From: Paraprevotella clara YIT 11840
Lineage (GTDB): Bacteria; Bacteroidota; Bacteroidia; Bacteroidales; Bacteroidaceae
DNA length: 64,000 nt
Direction: 5' to 3'
Assembly (NCBI RefSeq): GCF_000233955.1
Contig: NZ_JH376599.1
Span: 64,277-128,276 of the forward strand
Part shown: one piece after another, positions 34,089 through 46,557 of the stretch
Layout of the letters: every line of letters starts with the position of its first letter
How positions within the stretch are numbered: the stretch's first letter is position 1
Translations under genes and position numbers: made by a program
Notes under the pieces: model-generated
Told to the model about the DNA's origin: nothing
The model's input: only the letters and a program-made list of their open reading frames with translations
The model's database searches: none

Positions 34089-34162
34089 GGTGCGTTAGTT
34101 CAGTTGGTTAGAATACATGCCTGTCACGCATGGGGTCACGGGTTCGAGTCCCGTACGCACCG
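34089..34162 (+). tRNA. tRNA-Asp (GTC), integration site
   Basis: This 74-nt cloverleaf is identical to the tRNA-Asp at 1472-1545. The element at 34150-46346 is inserted at its 3' end. The tRNA is kept intact because the element supplies the same 3' sequence. Confidence 0.97.
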
Positions 34163-34239
34163 CAACAACATCCCGAAGCCCTTGAAAGTCAATCACTTTC
34201 AAGGGCTTTTTTCTTGGGGTCTCAATCGAGAGACCAATC
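34150..34239 (+). repeat. attL direct repeat
   Basis: This 90-bp repeat differs from the copy at 46257-46346 only at 34164 and 34229. It begins within the T-arm/acceptor of tRNA-Asp (CCCGTACGCACCGC) and includes the tRNA terminator and a GGTCTC-aatcga-GAGACC palindrome. Confidence 0.9.
34176..34212 (+). terminator. Terminator of tRNA-Asp
   Basis: The perfect 14-bp arms AAGCCCTTGAAAGT (34176-34189) and ACTTTCAAGGGCTT (34195-34208) are followed by a T run. A second copy lies in the right repeat at 46283-46319. Confidence 0.92.
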
Positions 34240-34835
34240 CGATAATACACCGTGATGCATTCTGATACATTGCAGTTTGCTGTAAACCACCCTTTTATTA
34301 TATTCCTGTCTGCAAATAGCCTTTTCCCACAAATCACTGTGTTCATGATTTGACGAAATATCCCAATAACTTTTTCATAGTCCCCTGATTGATACCGATA
34401 GGGAGACCAACGGTGTAGCCCACATACAATACGCATACTGTGGGCTACACCGTTTTTGTTCTATACCTTATTATAATATGTCGGCAGAATACCAACTCTT
34501 ATTACCCCATTATTCATTCACGCAAGTAAAGTTGGTCTCCCCATTGGTCTCCCGAAACGTTCTGCCTGTTACTTTTTCTTTCTTTCATCAAAAGTCGGCA
34601 GACGGTTGAGGTCTGTTTTGGCTACCAACTATTCGGGGAAATATCACGTGTTTTTCTCTTTTTTTCATTGGTAGTGCATTTTCTTCAAAAGGTCTGATTT
34701 CGTGAGAGATTTTTCTGTTGCGTTTATCAAATCTGGTAGTAACTTATATCTGTTTGGGTAGTAATTTTCTTATTATTTAATAGTCGTAATTACCTGTGTA
34801 TCAGCTACTTATTTTTATATTTCAAAAATAAAAAA
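34240..34835. other. Gene-free left end of the element
   Basis: About 600 bases without a credible gene lie between attL and the first element promoter. They hold three further GGTCTC/GAGACC boxes (34403, 34534 and 34546) and a strong hairpin at 34409-34454. These look like recombination or insulation signals rather than coding sequence. Confidence 0.6.
34409..34458 (+). terminator. Orphan terminator-like hairpin in the element's left end
   Basis: The perfect 16-bp arms AACGGTGTAGCCCACA (34409-34424) and TGTGGGCTACACCGTT (34439-34454) are followed by a T tract. No plus-strand gene lies directly before it, so it may insulate the element from transcription entering from the tRNA. Confidence 0.7.
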
Positions 34836-37429: not shown

Positions 37430-37448
37430 ATATGACAAGCCGTCATAT
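37430..37448. promoter_or_regulatory. Palindromic site upstream of int
   Basis: The perfect inverted repeat ATATGAC-aagcc-GTCATAT lies 106 bases before the integrase ATG. The same palindrome occurs twice near the right end of the element (46037-46055 and 46092-46110), suggesting a protein-binding site used by the element. Confidence 0.65.
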
Positions 37449-37553: not shown

Positions 37554-38894
37554 ATGTGTAAGAAAGATTTTTTCTATTGTAAAGATGTAATCAGATTCTC
37601 CTTGAAGAATGCCACGAAGCCGATTTCCACAATCAGGCTTCGGGTAAATCTGCATGGTGAAAGACTGACATTCTATCTGCCTGTCGAGTACAAGATACAG
37701 CCCAAACATTGGGACAAGGAAATGGGGTGTGCCATAGAGGACAGCAAACGGAATCCCGACTTGAAAGGGAATATACGGCTGCAACTGATATTACGCAATA
37801 TCAACAAAGAGATTGAGAAAACCACCAATGCCCTAATCAAGGTGTTGGAGGAAATGAAATTACACGAAATCTATCCTACCGTGGATGCCGTGCGTACAAA
37901 GTTGCGTGAAGAATTGAACCAAGCTACAAAGGAAAAACGGATGTTTGCAGACTTCATCAGTTTCATGGAATATTACATTTCCCTCTGTAAGGACGGAACT
38001 ATACTGAACAGCAAAGGGGGAAGACTGGCAGCAGGTACAATACAGAGCTATGCTTCAACTCTGAAAATCGTAAAGCAGTATTGCGCCAACAGACGGATAA
38101 AGTTGAGATTGGACGGTGTAACCGTGAACTTCTACAATGACTTTGTGAAATTTATGAATGAAGCCAGCCATTCCCGTGGAAAATACAAGCCGAATGCGAT
38201 TGGAAAATTCGTCAAGAGCATAAAGGCTATGTTGCGGTATGCCTACGAGAACAACTATACCGCCAATGACGACTTTAAGCGCAAGGAGTTCAAAGTGTAT
38301 AAGGAAAATGTGGAAACGGTCTATCTGACGGAGAAAGAATTGGATAACCTCTACAATCTTGAACTCAACGAGGGTGAATCTTGTGTAAGGGACAGCTTCA
38401 TTGTATCAAGTTATACAGGGTTGCGCTATTCCGATATAGCACGCTTACAGCAGAAACACTTGGACTTTGACAACAAACTGCTAACGATTGTAACCCAAAA
38501 GACCAATACGCTTGTGGTAATCCCCATGCATCCCAAAGTGGAAGCCATTTTCCGCAAGTATGGAAACCAACCGCCTGCCGTGCAGTCCAACCAAAGCACA
38601 AACAGAATATTAAAAAAATTGTGCCGTAAGGCAGGAATCACTAACTTTGTCTCCGTGGTCGAGACATCGGGTGGAATTAAGCATGAGATTACCCATGAGA
38701 AGTGCGACATGGTAACCAGCCATACAGCCCGAAGAAGTTTCGCTACCAATGCTTACAGGGCAGGAATACCGAGCTTGTCTATCATGCAGATAACGGGACA
38801 CAGCACGGAAACCAGTTTTATGAAGTATATCAGAATATCCAAGGAAGAGAATGCGATTGCGTTAAGCAGGCATACGTTCTTTAATCATTTATAA
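37554..38894 (+). CDS. Tyrosine site-specific integrase
   Basis: This 446-residue integrase has an N-terminal arm-binding domain (RFSLKNATKPISTIRLRVNLHGERLTFYLPVEYKIQPKHWDK, the Bacteroides Arm-DNA-bind pattern), a SAM-like core-binding domain (about 130-230) and a catalytic domain. Visible catalytic residues are Arg291 (TGLRYSD), Lys316 (TQKTN), His390 and Arg393 (HTARRS), His416 (GHSTE) and Tyr425 (SFMKY). It should integrate the element at tRNA-Asp. A palindromic site lies just upstream. Confidence 0.95.
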   Translation: MCKKDFFYCKDVIRFSLKNATKPISTIRLRVNLHGERLTFYLPVEYKIQPKHWDKEMGCAIEDSKRNPDLKGNIRLQLILRNINKEIEKTTNALIKVLEEMKLHEIYPTVDAVRTKLREELNQATKEKRMFADFISFMEYYISLCKDGTILNSKGGRLAAGTIQSYASTLKIVKQYCANRRIKLRLDGVTVNFYNDFVKFMNEASHSRGKYKPNAIGKFVKSIKAMLRYAYENNYTANDDFKRKEFKVYKENVETVYLTEKELDNLYNLELNEGESCVRDSFIVSSYTGLRYSDIARLQQKHLDFDNKLLTIVTQKTNTLVVIPMHPKVEAIFRKYGNQPPAVQSNQSTNRILKKLCRKAGITNFVSVVETSGGIKHEITHEKCDMVTSHTARRSFATNAYRAGIPSLSIMQITGHSTETSFMKYIRISKEENAIALSRHTFFNHL

Positions 38895-39966: not shown

Positions 39967-40872
39967 ATGCCTACAAAGAACACCATACGCAGACATTATC
40001 TGATAATCCGCAGAATATTGCGGAATGATTATCCAAGCAAACATATCCTGCTTGAATACATGAAGCAATATGACGTGGAAGTTGGAGAAAGGACTTTCCA
40101 AAGAGACTTGGCAGAGATACGCAGCAACTTCGACATTGAAATCATATATGATGAAAAGAAGAACGGCTACTTTGCACAGACTGACAGTACATTGGAATTA
40201 GACAAGTTACTGTATTTTATAGGATTGGCGGAAAGCTCGGATATTGTCCTCTCTACCATGAGGGATAAAAACAGGCTGCTGCAATATCTTGCTGTCAGCC
40301 CCGATCCCCGTGCAAAAGGAGTGGAACATATCGGGTGGCTGTTGAGGGCTATCCAAAATCAGACGGTTGTCCGCTTTTCCCATTATAATTACCAGTCGGG
40401 AGAAACCAAAGACTATACCGTCTGTCCCTACTTGCTGAAAGAGTTTGAGGGCATGTGGTATTTGTTTGCCTTTGTGGATAAGTTGAAATCGTTCCGTACA
40501 TTCGGATTGGACAGAATACACAATCTTATAACAACAGACGATGTGTTCCAACGAGAACCTGCATTGGAAGAAACTGCCAAACGCTTTGATGATGTGTATG
40601 GGCTTGTCTATGAACCCGACAACAATCCGACTGCCCCGATAGAAGAAGTCAGGTTGAAGGTCTCTCCTTCCATGTTGCCCTATCTCCATTCGTTGCCAAT
40701 CCATTCCTCACAGGTAATAGAGGGTGATGTTATCACCCTGCATCTGATAATCAATCCCGAATTGGAGAACAGGATAATGGGCTATGGAGAACATATAGAG
40801 GTGTTGTCTCCGTTGTCATTGAGGGAAAGCATAAAGAACAGAATACAAAAGATGTTATCCAATTATAAATGA
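39967..40872 (+). CDS. WYL-domain transcriptional regulator
   Basis: This 301-residue protein has an N-terminal winged HTH (IRRHYLIIRRILRNDYPSKHILLEYMKQYDVEVGERTFQRDLAEI) and a WYL domain (about residues 125-200: QNQTVVRFSHYNYQSGETKDYTVCPYLLKEFEGMWYLFAFVD, with the Trp-Tyr-Leu core). A WCX-like C-terminal part follows. WYL regulators often sense nucleic acid or nucleotide ligands and control defence genes. A shared promoter box in this element (TACGTC-N7-GTCG) is a candidate target, as inference. Confidence 0.9.
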   Translation: MPTKNTIRRHYLIIRRILRNDYPSKHILLEYMKQYDVEVGERTFQRDLAEIRSNFDIEIIYDEKKNGYFAQTDSTLELDKLLYFIGLAESSDIVLSTMRDKNRLLQYLAVSPDPRAKGVEHIGWLLRAIQNQTVVRFSHYNYQSGETKDYTVCPYLLKEFEGMWYLFAFVDKLKSFRTFGLDRIHNLITTDDVFQREPALEETAKRFDDVYGLVYEPDNNPTAPIEEVRLKVSPSMLPYLHSLPIHSSQVIEGDVITLHLIINPELENRIMGYGEHIEVLSPLSLRESIKNRIQKMLSNYK

Positions 40873-40963
40873 ATTATTGCCAGATTATTTGCATGAGCCG
40901 TTGCAGCAATGTAACGGTATTTTTTTGCCATTTTCTCGTCAGTGATGAAAGATATTAGACCAC

Positions 40964-40998
40964 CGACTTAAACTGACGTACCCCTAATCTTATCTTTG
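40964..40998 (+). promoter_or_regulatory. Promoter with element box, pointing antisense to the XRE gene
   Basis: The -7 box TATCTTTG (40991-40998) has CGAC-N7-GACGTA (40964-40980), the reverse of the box found at 43717 and 44708, in its -33 region. On the plus strand it points into the 3' end of the minus-strand XRE gene. It may yield an antisense RNA, or be left over from a lost gene. Confidence 0.45.
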
Positions 40999-41012
40999 CG
41001 GAAAAAACAGGC

Positions 41013-41246
41013 TTATATGTCAAAATTGATAGGAGGAAAGAAATCGGCAGGGGAACAATCGAAAAATTGTGCGATAAGGAAAACTTGGTGTACGCTGTAC
41101 TTTATGTCAAATTTATCGCTCTCCACCTGTCCTATGAAACTGGGTGAACATTCCAATATCGCAGCCAGTCCACGCTGCGATATGCCAAGTTCCTTTCGTT
41201 TCTCCCGAACCTTATTAATGACGAATAAATCGACCTTTGACTTCAT
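41013..41246 (-). CDS. XRE-family repressor-like protein
   Basis: This 77-residue single-domain protein is an HTH_3 domain (INKVREKRKELGISQRGLAAILECSPSFIGQVESDKFDIKYSV) with a short C-terminal tail. It is the only gene in the central part of the element on the minus strand, and diverges from the DUF1643 gene. It is a candidate regulator of the element. Confidence 0.88.
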   Translation of the reverse strand: MKSKVDLFVINKVREKRKELGISQRGLAAILECSPSFIGQVESDKFDIKYSVHQVFLIAQFFDCSPADFFPPINFDI

Positions 41247-41286
41247 AAAACCCTGTTTTCGAAACTGTAAAGTTGAAAAAAAGATT

Positions 41287-41294
41287 TATCTTTG
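41287..41294 (+). promoter_or_regulatory. -7 box of the DUF1643 gene
   Basis: TATCTTTG lies 40 bases before the ATG at 41334. The frame of the gene extends upstream into this box but should not be translated from there. Confidence 0.55.
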
Positions 41295-41333
41295 TGCTTA
41301 GTAATAATAAGCATACACAAAAGACAAAAGGTT

Positions 41334-41963
41334 ATGGGTAAGAAAATTATTGAAAAAGGATGGCTGTACGAGTATGAGGAAACAGCAGAAAGCCAAATAA
41401 TAAACGGCTATGAAGTTACAGGGGTAAGATATGTGTTGGGAGAGCTATTTGACACTTCTTGTAATAAAGCGTTAATCTGTATCGGTATAAATCCAAGTAC
41501 GGCAATACCTGAACAGCTTGACCCAACACTAAAAAGGGTACAGAAATATGCCAAAAGAAGCGGTGAATATGGAGCATGGTATATGCTGAATGTATATCCG
41601 CAACGTGCAACCAATCCCGATGATATGGATATAGACCCCAATATGGAAATACACCGTAACAATCTGATTGCTATAAAGAACTTGTTATCCGAAATCAAAG
41701 AAGCAGATGTATGGTGTGCTTGGGGTAATCTTATCGGAAAGAGGAAATACCTGTATGACTTGTTGTTTGGAAATAAAGAAAAAGATATTGACGGTATTAT
41801 CAGCCTGTTCAATGCAAACTATCACTTCAAGGCATACGAAGCTACTACGAAAGGGAATCCTAAACACCCTATTTTGATAGGGGAAAAAGCTGAATTGAGC
41901 AGTTTGGATGAAATCGGATTGAAAGAATTATCGGATAGAATTATTAATAACATTAAGAAATAG
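41334..41963 (+). CDS. DUF1643 family protein
   Basis: This 209-residue protein matches DUF1643 (KALICIGINPSTAIPEQLDPTLKRV, YGAWYMLNVYPQRATNPDDM, VWCAWGNLIGKRKYL, GNPKHPIL). This cytoplasmic family is spread through mobile elements and phages and has no settled function. It is related in outline to uracil-DNA glycosylase-like folds, which is my inference from the N-P-S and G-N-P-x-H-P segments. The ATG at 41334 follows the -7 box. Confidence 0.85.
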   Translation: MGKKIIEKGWLYEYEETAESQIINGYEVTGVRYVLGELFDTSCNKALICIGINPSTAIPEQLDPTLKRVQKYAKRSGEYGAWYMLNVYPQRATNPDDMDIDPNMEIHRNNLIAIKNLLSEIKEADVWCAWGNLIGKRKYLYDLLFGNKEKDIDGIISLFNANYHFKAYEATTKGNPKHPILIGEKAELSSLDEIGLKELSDRIINNIKK

Positions 41964-41967
41964 CATT

Positions 41968-43239
41968 ATGAAATTGAAGTATTTATTGGCTGCTTGTACA
42001 GCCTTTTTTCTTGTATCTTGCAGCAATGATGATGAACTGCCCCAACTGCCCCAACATGGTGATATTGTAGGGTTGAATATCAAAGATGCAAAGTATATCT
42101 ATACAAGTGGAACTAACACCCGTTCTTCTGCTGCCCAATATCGACAGATTAAGAAAGACGGTAGAGACATGGAATTATCATGGATTGACGATAAGGGTGA
42201 TACGGTTAGAATAAATGATTTGTCTAAAATATGGGATATTAATGAAACGTATCTGATGATAAACACAGAAAGACCTATAAATTATAAACCCTCATTTGAT
42301 GAGAATGGGAATATACTTCTTGATCCAATAATAGGTGGAGGACACTCTTACCTCATTAATAAAGAGACAGAAGCGATATATGATTTAGGTATAGGACTAA
42401 ATGGAGAGAACGCTATAACAGATAAACAAGAAAATATCTATGCAACGCAATATTCTGGTCTTGCCTTGTATAAAATCCATACACAAGATGTTACAAATTT
42501 GAGATTGGAAATGTATGCACAGGCTTCAGTACCCCAAGCTCAATTTGTTGTGAATAATAAAGGAATGTGCTTCTACGATTATAGATACATCCGTCCGTCA
42601 TATGGTATGCAGCAGTTTATCATTTCTAATTTTATCCCCCAAACAGAGTATGGAAATGCTTTTGTATCTCACGACAACGAAGATTTATATCTCACTGCTG
42701 TTAGTGGAGAACATGAATCTTACAAACTTGTAGTTAGCAAGCTAAATGAGAATAAAGAACTCCAAAGTCAAATTATGGCAGAAACGGAGTTTCTTGATTA
42801 CTGGGGAATATCACAGCCCAACGATATACAAGTGAAATGGAATGAACGCAGGGCTACAATGTTGATAAATGTTTATGGACGCACATACGAATATCAGTTT
42901 GCTACAAAGGCATTGACAGAAGTTTCAGCTAATTTGAATGGATTTTTTGCCACCGATCGTTCCACTTATGTCACAACAAATGCTTTATATGCGCGGAAAT
43001 CTGTGGATAAATTGGATATTATAGCATTAGAGGACTACAGTATCAAGGAATTGGACTTGTCAAGCAAAGGCATTGATTTTCGTTCCATTTACACAATGGG
43101 CGGTTCTGATTTATTGTATTTTGCAGGTTTTCAATATAGCACAAGCCAATCTGTTATCGGAACGATTGATATAGACGGTAATGTGGAAATTACGGAATCA
43201 ACACCTAATCCTATCACTAACATAATACAAATAAATTAG
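41968..43239 (+). CDS. Surface lipoprotein of the element, unknown function
   Basis: This 423-residue lipoprotein has lipobox LVSC (Cys18) followed by SNDDE, the surface-export signal. The mature part has repeating beta blades (GHSYLINKETEAIYDLG, TQYSGLALYKIHTQDV, AFVSHDNEDLYLTAVSG), suggesting a beta-propeller. No named family is recognised. It lies 4 bases after the DUF1643 stop and 3 before the MazG-like gene, so the three form one unit. Confidence 0.75.
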   Translation: MKLKYLLAACTAFFLVSCSNDDELPQLPQHGDIVGLNIKDAKYIYTSGTNTRSSAAQYRQIKKDGRDMELSWIDDKGDTVRINDLSKIWDINETYLMINTERPINYKPSFDENGNILLDPIIGGGHSYLINKETEAIYDLGIGLNGENAITDKQENIYATQYSGLALYKIHTQDVTNLRLEMYAQASVPQAQFVVNNKGMCFYDYRYIRPSYGMQQFIISNFIPQTEYGNAFVSHDNEDLYLTAVSGEHESYKLVVSKLNENKELQSQIMAETEFLDYWGISQPNDIQVKWNERRATMLINVYGRTYEYQFATKALTEVSANLNGFFATDRSTYVTTNALYARKSVDKLDIIALEDYSIKELDLSSKGIDFRSIYTMGGSDLLYFAGFQYSTSQSVIGTIDIDGNVEITESTPNPITNIIQIN

Positions 43240-43242
43240 GGT

Positions 43243-43650
43243 ATGAAAAAGCAGCTCAAACAATTAGAAGAATTTCATCGGGCTTTTGGCTTGTATATAA
43301 ACGAACAGCCAACTTTGCGCATCCCCCAAGATTTGCATGAACTTCGTATGCGTGTGATGAAAGAAGAAGTTGATGAATATGCAGAAGAATACGCAATCAC
43401 AGGAGATACAGAGGATGAACGGCTGCAAGCGGTAGCCAAAGAATTAGCCGATATAGCTTACACCTTGTTGGGAACAGTTGTCTCTCACGGATTGCAGGAC
43501 GAGTTTGAGCGTATCTTCGATGCGGTGCATGAAAGCAATATGAGCAAATTGGACGAAAATGGAAAACCGATTTATCGTGAAGACGGTAAGATACTAAAAT
43601 CAAGCCGTTACCATGAACCCGATTTGAGTTTCTTGAAAAATAAGAAATAA
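43243..43650 (+). CDS. MazG-like nucleotide pyrophosphohydrolase
   Basis: This 135-residue protein belongs to the all-alpha NTP pyrophosphatase superfamily. The metal-binding helices are visible as MKEEVDEYAEEY (Glu41, Glu42, Glu45) and KELADIAYTL (Glu67, Asp70). The C-terminal FDAVHESNMSKLDENGKPIYREDGKILK is typical of MazG-like/MazZ proteins of phages and mobile elements, which remove pyrophosphate from (d)NTPs. It is the last gene of the DUF1643-lipoprotein unit. Confidence 0.85.
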   Translation: MKKQLKQLEEFHRAFGLYINEQPTLRIPQDLHELRMRVMKEEVDEYAEEYAITGDTEDERLQAVAKELADIAYTLLGTVVSHGLQDEFERIFDAVHESNMSKLDENGKPIYREDGKILKSSRYHEPDLSFLKNKK

Positions 43651-43716
43651 TTTCTCTATACCAACCGCTATGATTATGAAAAATTGTAGCGGTTGTTTTT
43701 GTAAATAAACAAAACC

Positions 43717-43753
43717 TACGTCAAAAAATGTCGCAGGTCAAGTAATAACTTTG
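43717..43753 (+). promoter_or_regulatory. Promoter with element box, upstream of the DnaB-like gene
   Basis: The -7 box TAACTTTG (43746-43753) is preceded, 12 bp upstream, by TACGTC-aaaaaat-GTCG (43717-43733). The same box at the same distance precedes the gene pair at 44759. Confidence 0.6.
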
Positions 43754-43782
43754 CAATGTATTAATCATAAAAATTAGAAAAT

Positions 43783-44640
43783 ATGAAATGCTTTGGAAGA
43801 AATGGATTAGAGGGAACTAAAAAACCGAATATAAAATCGGGATTTCCTGAATTGGATAAAATAACAAATGGGTGGAACAATGGCGACTTGATTGTTATTG
43901 CTGCTCGTCCTGCAATGGGAAAGTCAGCCTTTGGAATGTCTTTATTAAAAGAAATAGCAGTAAAGAATAGAATACCTACGGCTTTCTTTTCTCTTGAAAT
44001 GTCAAGTAATCAAGCTATAAACAGATTACGTATGGTATTAAGCAAAGTGGATGGAGCGAAAATAAAGGTTTACGACAATGGTTATACGGATACTTTAAAC
44101 GAAGAAGAAAAACGCAGACTTGAAGATGCTGGAAAGCAAATGGATATTGCTCCTATTTACCTTGATGACTCTCCCTCTTTGTCCATACACGAATTATCCC
44201 AACAAGCAATCCGATTGGTTAGTGATTTTCAAATAAAACTGATTATTGTTGATTATCTACAATTAATGAACTCAGGACTTCTATTCTCAGATAGAAATGA
44301 GGAAATGGCTTATATTATACGTAGATTAAAAGCATTGGCTAAAGACTTGAATATCCCGATTATAGTATTCAGTCCAGTATATCGTAGAGAAAGTCGGGAG
44401 GAAATAGATGGTATACGTCCTCAATTAAGAGATTTACGTTGTGATGCCATTGAGCAGGATGCAGACATGATTTGTTTTATCCATCGTCCAGAATATTATA
44501 GAATTTATAATGATATAAATGGCAATGATTTACATGGTAAGGCAGAAATAATTGTTGCTAAAAATCGTAATGGAAATAGAGGAGATGTACTTTTAAAATT
44601 TAATGGAGGATATTCAAGTTTTGATAATTTAGATGAATAA
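43783..44640 (+). CDS. Stand-alone DnaB-type helicase C-terminal domain protein
   Basis: This 285-residue protein contains only the RecA-like motor domain of replicative helicases; the N-terminal DnaG-binding domain is absent. Walker A is ARPAMGKSA (residues 41-49), Walker B LIIVDYLQLM, and motif H4 DLRCDAIEQDADMICFIHRPEYY. The usual A-L-S-Q-L-x-R is replaced by VFSPVYRRES, so the polar Gln sensor is changed. It may help replicate the element or act in defence. It has its own promoter with the shared box. Confidence 0.85.
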   Translation: MKCFGRNGLEGTKKPNIKSGFPELDKITNGWNNGDLIVIAARPAMGKSAFGMSLLKEIAVKNRIPTAFFSLEMSSNQAINRLRMVLSKVDGAKIKVYDNGYTDTLNEEEKRRLEDAGKQMDIAPIYLDDSPSLSIHELSQQAIRLVSDFQIKLIIVDYLQLMNSGLLFSDRNEEMAYIIRRLKALAKDLNIPIIVFSPVYRRESREEIDGIRPQLRDLRCDAIEQDADMICFIHRPEYYRIYNDINGNDLHGKAEIIVAKNRNGNRGDVLLKFNGGYSSFDNLDE

Positions 44641-44707
44641 GCCATAGTAACTCATATCCATAGAGCCATTATTCCAATTACGGAGCAGTGGCTCTTTTTT
44701 CTGTACC

Positions 44708-44744
44708 TACGTCTAATTCTGTCGTAAGCACTGACCTACCTTTG
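44708..44744 (+). promoter_or_regulatory. Promoter with element box, upstream of the nucleotidyltransferase pair
   Basis: The -7 box TACCTTTG (44737-44744) is preceded, 12 bp upstream, by TACGTC-taattct-GTCG (44708-44724), as at the DnaB-like gene. The transcript would start only about 10 bases before the ATG at 44759. Confidence 0.62.
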
Positions 44745-44758
44745 TTGCAAAAAATCCC

Positions 44759-45088
44759 ATGCAAAGGAAAATATTCAAATTCAAGATAATAAGCAAGGAG
44801 GGTAATTGTATCCTGTCGCTTGATTATACTAATCTGACTAACGAGATTATCCGTTCAATCACGAAAAATCTAATCAAGATAGAACCTAACGAGAAATGCA
44901 AATTGCTGTTTGTAGGGAAAGAAGATTGCAGGCTTACATTGGAAGATGTCTATAATTTGTCGAGCCTGTTCCAATCGGTTGTAGGTTCGGGTTTGGTATG
45001 GGATATTATAGGAGACTACCTATATACGGGCGAGAGCCAAGACTTGGACGGTTACCTGCTTATTAACCCTGACCTTATCAATCAATGA
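44759..45088 (+). CDS. Small protein of unknown function, coupled to the nucleotidyltransferase
   Basis: This 109-residue protein has no signal peptide. It looks like an alpha/beta fold (IFKFKIISKEGNCILSLD, then a helix LTNEIIRSITKNLIKI, then KCKLLFVGKEDC and a helical LEDVYNLSSLFQSVVG). It is not recognised; there is no HTH as in AbiEi antitoxins. Its stop overlaps the start of the nucleotidyltransferase gene (ATGA, 45085-45088), which suggests the two products work together. Confidence 0.65.
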   Translation: MQRKIFKFKIISKEGNCILSLDYTNLTNEIIRSITKNLIKIEPNEKCKLLFVGKEDCRLTLEDVYNLSSLFQSVVGSGLVWDIIGDYLYTGESQDLDGYLLINPDLINQ

Positions 45089-45666
45089 GCAATACACTAC
45101 CACTATTCCAACAATACACTCCATACGATACGGAGATTGTAAAGACCGCCACCCGATGCGGTTTATACCTTATCGGTGGAACGGCAATAGACTTGCTGTG
45201 TAGGTATTACTCCATTCCGTTTTGGAGAAACAGATCTGATAATGACCTTGATTTTTGGACTTCGTTTGCCAATAAGGAAAGGGACAGGTTCGTCAAACAA
45301 GTAGGTAGCAAATTCGGGATTGGCGTAGAGGACAGTTCCGAATATATGGTTTCCTTAGAACTGGAGAAAGTCAAGATTGAGACTGATATACTGATAGATT
45401 ATGATTGCGCCAATACAAAGTTTGCATCTTTTATAAACGGAATTTGTGTAATGTCTCCTATATACCTGTTTTCCTCTAAGTTTGACAGATACATTAATAC
45501 CGCTAACATTCAGCGCAAGAAGACCGATTTTTATGATTTAAGGACATTGCTGTCTATAATCGAAAAGACAAACGGCTTTGATGAACTTGAAAGCCATTTG
45601 TCTAATCGGGATTATGACCAGAGAGCCGAAGATATGCTCAACGGCATAATTGCAAGTATGTTATAA
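45085..45666 (+). CDS. AbiEii-like nucleotidyltransferase
   Basis: This 193-residue protein has the DNA polymerase-beta-type nucleotidyltransferase core: GLYLIGGTAIDLL (Gly31-Gly32), the metal pair Asp54-x-Asp56 in RSDNDLDFW, and the third acid Asp101 in KIETDILID. This is the layout of AbiEii/AbiGii toxins, which in some systems modify tRNA ends. It is shorter than most AbiEii proteins. The partner at 44759 overlaps it by 4 bases. A toxin or abortive-infection role is inference. Confidence 0.75.
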   Translation: MSNTLPLFQQYTPYDTEIVKTATRCGLYLIGGTAIDLLCRYYSIPFWRNRSDNDLDFWTSFANKERDRFVKQVGSKFGIGVEDSSEYMVSLELEKVKIETDILIDYDCANTKFASFINGICVMSPIYLFSSKFDRYINTANIQRKKTDFYDLRTLLSIIEKTNGFDELESHLSNRDYDQRAEDMLNGIIASML

Positions 45667-46036: not shown

Positions 46037-46055
46037 ATATGACGAGCCGTCATAT
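46037..46055. promoter_or_regulatory. Palindromic site near the right end (1)
   Basis: The perfect inverted repeat ATATGAC-gagcc-GTCATAT lies upstream of the HU gene and about 200 bp from attR. A half-site ATATGAC follows at 46070-46076. Confidence 0.65.
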
Positions 46056-46091: not shown

Positions 46092-46110
46092 ATATGACGA
46101 GTAGTCATAT
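46092..46110. promoter_or_regulatory. Palindromic site near the right end (2)
   Basis: ATATGAC-gagta-GTCATAT is the third perfect copy of the element palindrome. Two GGTCTC boxes follow directly (46121 and 46133). Confidence 0.65.
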
Positions 46111-46256: not shown

Positions 46257-46346
46257 CCCGTACGCACCGCGACAACATCCCGAAGCCCTTGAAAGTCAAT
46301 CACTTTCAAGGGCTTTTTTCTTGGGGTCTCAATCGGGAGACCAATC
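46257..46346 (+). repeat. attR direct repeat
   Basis: This is the second copy of the 90-bp repeat, with the tRNA-Asp 3' end (first 13 bases), the tRNA terminator hairpin (46283-46315) and the GGTCTC/GAGACC palindrome. The rest of the tRNA is not present here. Confidence 0.9.
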
Positions 46347-46557
46347 TAATAACAAAATCCTGAACGGGTTCAAGGACATCTATTGGAAATTAATCCAAGA
46401 ACATCCGGAACTTACTGCAAGGCAGGTGGTGGATTATTACAATCCGAACGCTTTAAACCCGTTTGCCCTGCAGCAAGAGGACTTATTGGTGTGGCCCGTG
46501 GATAAAATTATCTATGGGGAATGGGGCAGAGTCAAGCATGAAGTGCGCTCTCCTCCC
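46347..46557 (+). pseudogene. Possible gene fragment next to attR
   Basis: A reading frame runs through here (NKILNGFKDIYWKLIQEHP ... NPNALNPFALQQEDLLVWP). It has protein-like composition, but it begins in the att repeat and ends in the dispersed repeat, so neither end is native. The YWKLI ... NPFAL...L.VWP pattern faintly recalls phage baseplate or LysM-like tail proteins. It is probably a remnant of an earlier element or of the original chromosome. The source is not known. Confidence 0.4.

What the first reader, a model, noticed from the sequence alone, without database searches (positions are those of the whole stretch)
40964..44744. Shared operator-like box TACGTC-N7-GTCG in three element promoters
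The box lies exactly 12 bp before the -7 box at the DnaB-like gene (43717-43733) and at the 109-residue/nucleotidyltransferase pair (44708-44724). It lies in reverse, 10 bp before the -7 box, at 40964-40980. It covers the -33 region and the GTC halves are one helix turn apart. This points to one regulator controlling the helicase-like gene and the possible toxin pair together. The WYL and XRE proteins of the element are the obvious candidates.
Basis: partly seen in the sequence, partly recalled or inferred. Interest (0 to 1): 0.55.

Follow-up and report, generated by a model that had tools for sequence, protein, structure and literature searches.

The report
WYL activator sites in mobile element
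Three gene switches in a small mobile element carry the same DNA landing site, and comparison with relatives indicates that it belongs to the element's own WYL-type regulator, probably a damage-sensing activator resembling Caulobacter DriD.

Summary
The three boxes are real and correctly placed. The motif was slightly misread: it is a palindrome (core CGNC-N7-GNCG; fuller TACG[A/T]C-N7-G[A/T]CGTA), not a direct GTC repeat. Read so, all three sites, including the 'reversed' one, lie 12 bp from a TAnnTTTG -7 box and lack a TTG at -33. Of 15 cores in the window only these 3 have a -7 box at 11-12 bp. The motif tracks the WYL regulator, not XRE. In 38 WYL loci not used to define it, 24 of 50 cores have TAnnTTTG at 11-12 bp, against 0 of 285 elsewhere (that background is partly from other phyla). 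37 of 43 WYL loci lack this XRE, among them most site-bearing ones; an element lineage with XRE but no WYL gene of its own lacks the sites. The motif matches the published target of the ssDNA-activated WYL activator DriD, ATACGAC(X)7GTCGTAT, which also sits over a poor -35 at fixed distance (PMC12340889). Best reading: a DriD-like activator switches on a truncated DnaB helicase, p109/NTase and a promoter antisense to xre. Operator assignment is strong; activation and ssDNA sensing are inferred. The 'toxin pair' idea is not supported.

The parts
34089..34163 (+). tRNA-Asp used as integration site
   Evidence: ARAGORN
34150..34245 (.). left att direct repeat (96 nt, 96% identical to the right copy)
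37554..38894 (+). tyrosine integrase, first gene of the int-orf346-WYL run
   Evidence: Pfam Phage_integrase
39967..40872 (+). WYL + WCX regulator (301 aa), the proposed activator
   Evidence: Pfam; model and structure comparison; profile search
40962..40980 (.). site 3 (ACCGAC-N7-GACGTA; core 40964-40978), in a promoter antisense to xre
40991..40998 (+). -7 box TATCTTTG of site 3
41013..41246 (-). XRE (HTH_3) protein, 77 aa; its 3' end faces the site-3 promoter
41295..41313 (.). TGCTTAGTAATAATAAGCA, one mismatch from TGCTTAG-N5-CTAAGCA; proposed XRE operator
41334..41963 (+). DUF1643 protein, first gene of the DUF1643 / 423-aa / MazG-like run, downstream of the site-3 promoter
   Evidence: Pfam
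43717..43735 (.). site 1 (TACGTC-N7-GTCGCA; core 43719-43733) before DnaB_C
43746..43753 (+). -7 box TAACTTTG of site 1
43783..44640 (+). DnaB C-terminal domain only (285 aa), no N-terminal domain
   Evidence: Pfam DnaB_C 8e-74, residues 17-282; relatives aligned
44708..44726 (.). site 2 (TACGTC-N7-GTCGTA; core 44710-44724) before p109
44737..44744 (+). -7 box TACCTTTG of site 2
44759..45088 (+). p109, no significant family match
45085..45666 (+).
46257..46352 (.). right att direct repeat

Best explanation
The box is the operator of the element's own WYL-WCX protein, a DriD-like transcription activator. SHOWN: a palindromic site TACG[A/T]C-N7-G[A/T]CGTA (outer letters looser) lies over the -33 region of three promoters, 12 bp from a TAnnTTTG -7 box, and this site-plus-spacing travels with WYL genes in the order and phylum. 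INFERRED: a WYL homodimer, probably switched on by single-stranded DNA from damage or invading replication, binds the site and anchors RNA polymerase at promoters that lack a -33 element. It thereby turns on (1) the truncated DnaB helicase, (2) p109 and the NTase-like gene, and (3) a promoter that runs antisense through xre towards the DUF1643 run, which would lower XRE and raise that run together, somewhat like lambda CII at P_RE (recalled analogy).
For: (a) Element family: in eight records with promoter-linked cores (window, L042, L043, L044, L045, L041, L094, L010) all 19 such cores are 12 bp from the -7 box, 13 with 6 of 6 and 6 with 5 of 6 matches to TAnnTTTG; spacings 10-13 were looked at. 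(b) Independent test: 38 WYL loci, 28-54% identical to the window protein, not used to define the motif. Strict core CGWC-N7-GWCG from the element family: 10 sites in 10 loci within 150 bp of the WYL gene, 0.28 expected. Relaxed core (widened after seeing these loci): 21 in 19 loci, 0.89 expected. Controls: spacer 4, 5, 6, 8, 9, 10 gave 0, 0, 0, 1, 1, 0; swapped letters 0, reversed 2. (c) Fixed spacing: after these 21 cores, TAnnTTTG on the WYL-sense strand starts at 11 (10 cases) or 12 (2) and, in the range 0-52, otherwise once, at 51; over whole WYL loci 24 of 50 cores have it at 11-12, against 0 of 273 in 608 kb of other held loci and 0 of 12 in the window outside the element; Fisher P 4e-23. 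(d) WYL, not XRE: this XRE (tblastn E<=0.1) is in 6 of 43 WYL loci; L040 and L011 have XRE, no WYL in the held stretch and no core with a -7 box. (e) The motif matches DriD's ATACGAC(X)7GTCGTAT, and DriD sites overlap a poor -35 at constant distance from -10 (PMC12340889). (f) No TTG at -33 in 3 of 3 window and 21 of 22 forward-strand test promoters. (g) Protein: in VIA-align a DriD C-domain is top (Z 16.8, 183 aligned, rmsd 5.0) and a full-length DriD entry has Z 15.7 (248 aligned, rmsd 13.7), against at most 13.2 for BrxR, 12.7 for PafBC, 12.3 for CapW. By profile DriD entries score 66.8-69.1 bits, BrxR 27.6-29.8, CapW 23.0-31.8. Recognition-helix R42 and R46 are invariant in 38 homologues.
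Against: No binding or expression data exist. 19 of 38 test WYL loci have no core within 150 bp and 23 of 38 have no core with a perfect -7 box in the stretch held, so many homologues may use other sites. BrxR and CapW, also WYL proteins, are repressors with palindromes in promoters, so the direction of control is not settled by the site. PafB is nearly as close as DriD: single PafB chains score 62.7-62.9 bits and the fused PafBC chain 90.3; a PafB chain is first in Foldseek; other DriD entries have Z of only 12.7-14.7. The 0-of-273 background comes largely from viral contigs and genomes of other groups, where TAnnTTTG promoters are not expected, so that contrast is generous; the 0 of 12 in the window and the spacing histogram do not share this weakness. 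The WYL-less case is one lineage; the genome of L040 holds a distant WYL gene about 0.3 Mb away (the genome of L011 is not known). L010 has a site but no WYL gene in the 10.5 kb held, its contig ending 1.7 kb upstream. Around site 1 the window, L042 and L045 are nearly identical over the whole intergenic stretch, so conservation there is not independent evidence. ssDNA-contact residues were not compared.
Confidence: 0.7

Rival explanations
1. The WYL protein binds the site but is a repressor (BrxR/CapW-like): it blocks RNA polymerase at -33 until a ligand releases it.
For: The site overlaps the promoter core; characterised WYL regulators of phage defence (BrxR, CapW) repress (PMC9122601, PMC9122589, PMC9122588; passages). 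Genes near sites elsewhere include GmrSD_N and PDDEXK_4 proteins.
Against: Spacing to -7 is fixed at 11-12 bp in homologues across the phylum and the -33 TTG is missing, which a roadblock does not need but an activator at a defective promoter does; CapW sites overlap -10 instead; profile scores favour DriD and PafB over BrxR and CapW.
Confidence: 0.22
2. XRE is the regulator of the box.
For: XRE is encoded between the sites, and its 3' end lies beside site 3.
Against: Sites without this XRE in the distant WYL loci, XRE without promoter-linked sites in L040/L011. A separate palindrome TGCTTAG-N5-CTAAGCA, with 0-2 mismatches, is present in all 10 loci scanned, L040 and L011 included.
Confidence: 0.04
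3. The shared box is only a conserved promoter or recombination sequence with no dedicated regulator.
For: Boxes flank DnaB_C, which was not found in L043 and L044, so cassette exchange is conceivable.
Against: The same site recurs before unrelated genes in WYL loci; the inner 7 bp vary while the half-sites stay.
Confidence: 0.04

Closest known systems
DriD of Caulobacter crescentus (ssDNA-activated WYL transcription activator)
   Same: Target consensus ATACGAC(X)7GTCGTAT; site centred on the -35 region at constant distance from -10; poor -35; wHTH-WYL-WCX protein; DriD targets include dnaG and recJ (PMC12340889, a preprint: passages, section 11 and the first part of section 12 seen).
   Different: Promoters of the TAnnTTTG kind rather than Caulobacter sigma-73; encoded on a tRNA-Asp element; targets are a truncated DnaB, p109 and an antisense promoter; ssDNA response untested; about 16-19% identity in the structural alignments.
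PafBC of actinobacteria
   Same: WYL-WCX activator family, ssDNA-triggered, promoter-proximal site; profile score of PafB chains close to DriD's; PafB R44/R48 fall opposite R42/R46, in an alignment that is itself not significant.
   Different: Heterodimer with a non-palindromic motif, binding further downstream (PMC6789036 and PMC12340889, passages); here one protein and a palindrome.
BrxR / CapW
   Same: WYL-WCX homodimers on palindromes in promoters of defence genes; BrxR half-sites also have a 5-bp spacer.
   Different: Repressors; different half-sites; lower profile scores.
SiwR of Mycobacterium smegmatis
   Same: WYL activator with a 19-bp palindrome upstream of -10 (PMC10693628, passages).
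   Different: Sequence of its palindrome not compared; different targets.

Membership tests
DriD-type WYL activator | N-terminal wHTH followed by WYL and WCX domains | tested here: met
   Pfam WYL and WCX; N-terminal helices and wing strands in the model, aligned to full-length DriD over 2-301
DriD-type WYL activator | Palindromic target TACGAC-N7-GTCGTA | tested here: met
   sites TACG[A/T]C-N7-G[A/T]CGTA in the element family, with looser outer letters in window sites 1 and 3; published consensus
DriD-type WYL activator | Site over the -35 region at constant distance from -10, with poor -35 | tested here: met
   11-12 bp to TAnnTTTG; no TTG at -33 in 3 of 3 window promoters
DriD-type WYL activator | Binding of ssDNA in the WYL domain | not tested
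   residues not compared; needs a binding assay
DriD-type WYL activator | Activation of transcription | not testable with these tools
   needs reporter or RNA data
BrxR/CapW repressor family | Repression of adjacent defence genes | not testable with these tools
   needs reporter data; of 10 element proteins scanned in PADLOC the WYL protein matched WYL models, XRE and DnaB_C had weak matches, and no complete known system showed
Toxin-antitoxin pair (p109/NTase) | The two genes kept together in relatives | tested here: not met
   adjacent in window, L042, L043; not adjacent or NTase not found in L041, L010, L012, L044; L045 ends after p109
Toxin-antitoxin pair (p109/NTase) | A recognised toxin or antitoxin family | tested here: inconclusive
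   no significant match in Pfam, PADLOC, PHROGs, NCBIfam or PDB sequences; folds not compared

The most novel reading that the evidence does not exclude
Bacteroidota carry a phylum-wide, SOS-independent, ssDNA-sensing WYL regulon recognisable by one promoter signature (CGWCA-N5-TGDCG-N11/12-TAnnTTTG), spread partly on mobile elements and defence-like loci, which turns on truncated replication proteins (a DnaB C-terminal domain here and again in L157, a DnaA ATPase in L152), and which in this element also flips an XRE switch by activated antisense transcription.
Probability: 0.4. Interest if true: 0.8.

Novelty: new variant of a known kind. Interest (0 to 1): 0.62.

Why it matters
It ties an orphan motif to a regulator with strong comparative evidence, carries the DriD operator rules from an alphaproteobacterium to promoters of the TAnnTTTG kind, and gives a signature by which damage- or phage-responsive genes could be looked for in this phylum. 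It makes two questions directly testable: whether these mobile elements sense ssDNA through WYL proteins, and what a DnaB helicase core without its N-terminal domain does when induced.

Tried and rejected
The exact 17-bp string as a genome-wide marker: at chance level. With a promoter added and a gap of 9-15 (301 genomes): five matches, four of them in the two elements (G000, G196), the fifth in G198 with a spacing of 9; the control pattern had four. Viral contig scans for the motif (38 and 1 stretches) gave mainly unrelated contigs, used only as background, except L109, the same record as L012/L094. Distant XRE loci (L023-L038, L046-L051, L095-L102) served only as background. The direct-repeat reading (GTC...GTC) was dropped for the palindrome. 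A single-sequence model was poor (pLDDT 33) and was replaced by one from alignment A1. A1 has 38 of the 41 rows prepared: L153 and L160 (long branches) and L072 were left out; L159 and L076 had been too short for that list. In one search the chromosomal DnaB row was read in the wrong frame or strand and must be ignored; the 57% identity to a chromosomal DnaB over residues 16-283 comes. The tree (42 rows; L076 left out as too short) labels only near sites, so L163, L165 and L166, which have a promoter-linked site further away, stand there as 'none'; the label needed 8 changes against a shuffled mean of 13.8, none of 500 shuffles as low. The relaxed core was widened after looking at the test loci; the strict one is given beside it. 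Test loci are not all independent (L154/L155 and L085/L090 are close pairs), and some held stretches are short (2.6-4 kb). One search listed many more WYL matches than the 30 loci it supplied; only those 30 were examined.
Full report
WHAT IS THERE. The window carries a 12.1-kb element in tRNA-Asp: the tRNA is at 34089-34163 and a 96-nt direct repeat, beginning in the tRNA's 3' end, flanks it at 34150-34245 and 46257-46352. Its genes include an HTH_17 protein, DUF6371, a 351-aa protein, a tyrosine integrase, orf346, a WYL-WCX protein, an XRE protein on the other strand, DUF1643, a 423-aa protein that looks like a lipoprotein, a PRA-PH/MazG-like protein, a DnaB C-terminal domain without its N-terminal domain, p109, an NTase-like protein and HU (the lipoprotein and NTase labels are readings, not family matches).

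The literal string is at chance level in the whole genome (7, against 9 for the reversed pattern). Relatives show what it is: L043 has TACGTC-TAAAACT-GACGTA before p109, L041/L010/L012 have TACGTC-GTAAAAT-GACGTA before DnaB_C, L044 has TACGTC-CAGAGTT-GTCGTA. It is a palindrome with core CGNC-N7-GNCG. From the core, all three window sites are 12 bp from TAnnTTTG. So are all 19 promoter-linked cores in eight element-family records (window 3, L042 3, L043 2, L044 3, L045 3, L041 2, L094 2, L010 1), 13 with a perfect and 6 with a five-of-six -7 box; L040 and L011 have none (spacings 10-13 were looked at; L094 is the same record as L012, and L039 the same contig as L045). In the window, 3 of 15 cores have a -7 box at 11-12 bp and these are the three; 0 of 12 outside the element do. 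The TAnnTTTG and -33 TTG consensus is recalled.

WHOSE SITE IS IT? I took the WYL protein to the genomes. In the order draw 95 of 393 genomes had a match at E<=1e-20, and 30 loci were supplied; in the phylum draw 9 of 395 at E<=1e-25, giving nine more loci. Without the window's own, 38 test loci remain. With the strict core derived only from the element family, 10 of them have a site within 150 bp of the WYL gene (0.28 sites expected from the rest of the loci). With the relaxed core, 19 of 38 do (21 sites, 0.89 expected). Six spacer-length controls gave 0, 0, 0, 1, 1, 0; reversed and swapped-letter controls gave 2 and 0. The strongest result is the spacing: on the WYL-sense strand TAnnTTTG starts 11 (10 cases) or 12 (2 cases) bp after these 21 cores and, in the 0-52 range, elsewhere only once. 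Counting all cores in the 38 loci, 24 of 50 have this arrangement on either strand, against 0 of 273 in 608 kb of other held loci and 0 of 12 in the window outside the element. The 273 come largely from viral contigs and from other groups of bacteria, which makes that contrast generous. 15 of 38 test loci have at least one such perfect site; 23 do not, so the rule does not cover all homologues. On the tree the near-site label is clustered (8 changes, shuffled mean 13.8).

XRE IS NOT THE REGULATOR. tblastn found this XRE (E<=0.1) in 6 of the 43 WYL loci (window, L042, L043, L045, L041, L082); the other 37 lack it, including every test locus with a near site except L082. Conversely L040 and L011 carry XRE but no WYL gene in the stretch held, have no core with a -7 box, and their DnaB_C promoters read TATGTAGGAAATGATATA where L041 has the palindrome. 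The genome of L040 has one distant WYL gene about 0.3 Mb away. A separate palindrome, TGCTTAG-N5-CTAAGCA with 0-2 mismatches, was found in all 10 loci scanned and in the window lies between xre and DUF1643; it is the better candidate for XRE.

WHAT KIND OF WYL PROTEIN. A profile of 38 homologues (A1) finds DriD entries in the PDB at 66.8-69.1 bits, PafB chains at 62.7-62.9, the fused PafBC chain at 90.3, BrxR at 27.6-29.8 and CapW at 23.0-31.8. The model (pLDDT 84.7) matches DriD best by VIA-align: Z 16.8 over 183 residues for a C-domain, 15.7 for a full-length entry (others 12.7-14.7), against at most 13.2 for BrxR, 12.7 for PafBC and 12.3 for CapW; Foldseek ranks a PafB chain first and DriD next. 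The published DriD target is ATACGAC(X)7GTCGTAT, and DriD sites overlap a poor -35 at the same distance from -10 in its promoters (PMC12340889, a preprint; passages, section 11, first part of section 12). The agreement in half-site, 7-bp gap and position was met after the motif had been defined. The missing -33 TTG (3 of 3 here, 21 of 22 forward-strand test promoters) fits too.

HOW IT PROBABLY WORKS. Shown: the sites, the geometry, the linkage to WYL. Inferred: an ssDNA-loaded WYL dimer activates DnaB_C, p109/NTase and a third promoter that points into the 3' end of xre. That third site lies beside the xre stop in all eight records that hold both XRE and a WYL gene or fragment (window, L042, L043, L044, L045, L041, L094, L082) and not in L040/L011. 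The -7 box at 40991-40998 would start an RNA antisense to xre (41013-41246) leading to DUF1643 at 41334. The nearest analogue I can recall is lambda CII acting at P_RE. p109 goes with DnaB_C rather than with the NTase in L041, L010 and L012, but beside the NTase in the window, L042 and L043.

OTHER LOCI. Eight proteins encoded after or near sites or WYL genes elsewhere were scanned: Peptidase_M41 with AAA (L157), DUF2779 (L084), GmrSD_N (L085), DnaA ATPase (L152), PDDEXK_4 (L153), DUF2130 (L092), one without a match (L087), and in L157 another truncated DnaB_C (240 aa) with its own site 11 bp from TATTTTTG. This hints at replication stress or phage response but proves neither.

NOVELTY. Searches for WYL with Bacteroides/Bacteroid, DriD, DNA damage, mobile element and the half-site string listed no title or abstract that describes this site in Bacteroidota; one search listed 20 of 23 papers and 10 of 53, and the library is open-access only. 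DriD-type activators are known, so this is a new variant: other promoters, a mobile-element setting, and new targets.

Noticed in passing
37430-37448, 46037-46055, 46092-46110: A second palindrome ATATGAC-N5-GTCATAT precedes the integrase and the HU gene, with a shared leader GAGGAACGATTCTTGAAA (37506 +, 46010 -); found with up to 2 mismatches in all 10 loci scanned, directly before the WYL gene in L045. Regulator unknown.
   Followed up: partly
41295-41313: Palindrome TGCTTAG-N5-CTAAGCA (one mismatch here) just downstream of the DUF1643 -7 box, found with 0-2 mismatches in all 10 loci scanned; likely XRE operator.
   Followed up: partly
43783-44640: The window DnaB_C reads FSPVYR where L042, L045, L040, L041, L010, L011 and L012 read FSQLNR, so this copy may have an altered helicase motif.
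   Followed up: no
L044 and L041, between WYL and XRE: A gene that looks like a calcineurin-type phosphoesterase (by eye, no family search) sits between WYL and XRE; in L044 it has its own box-bearing promoter.
   Followed up: no
L154: 1493, 2083, 3343 (WYL-sense coordinates): Three further cores with TAnnTTTG at 11 bp, 3-5 kb upstream of a WYL gene in a member of the same class; genes there not identified.
   Followed up: no
L166: 5294 and 5351 (WYL-sense coordinates): Two cores 57 bp apart with -7 boxes pointing away from each other, a bidirectional arrangement such as the DriD preprint describes.
   Followed up: no
L141: 3887-3923 (-): The one viral contig that matched site plus -7 box at 12 bp; none of the window element's genes was found on it.
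   Followed up: no
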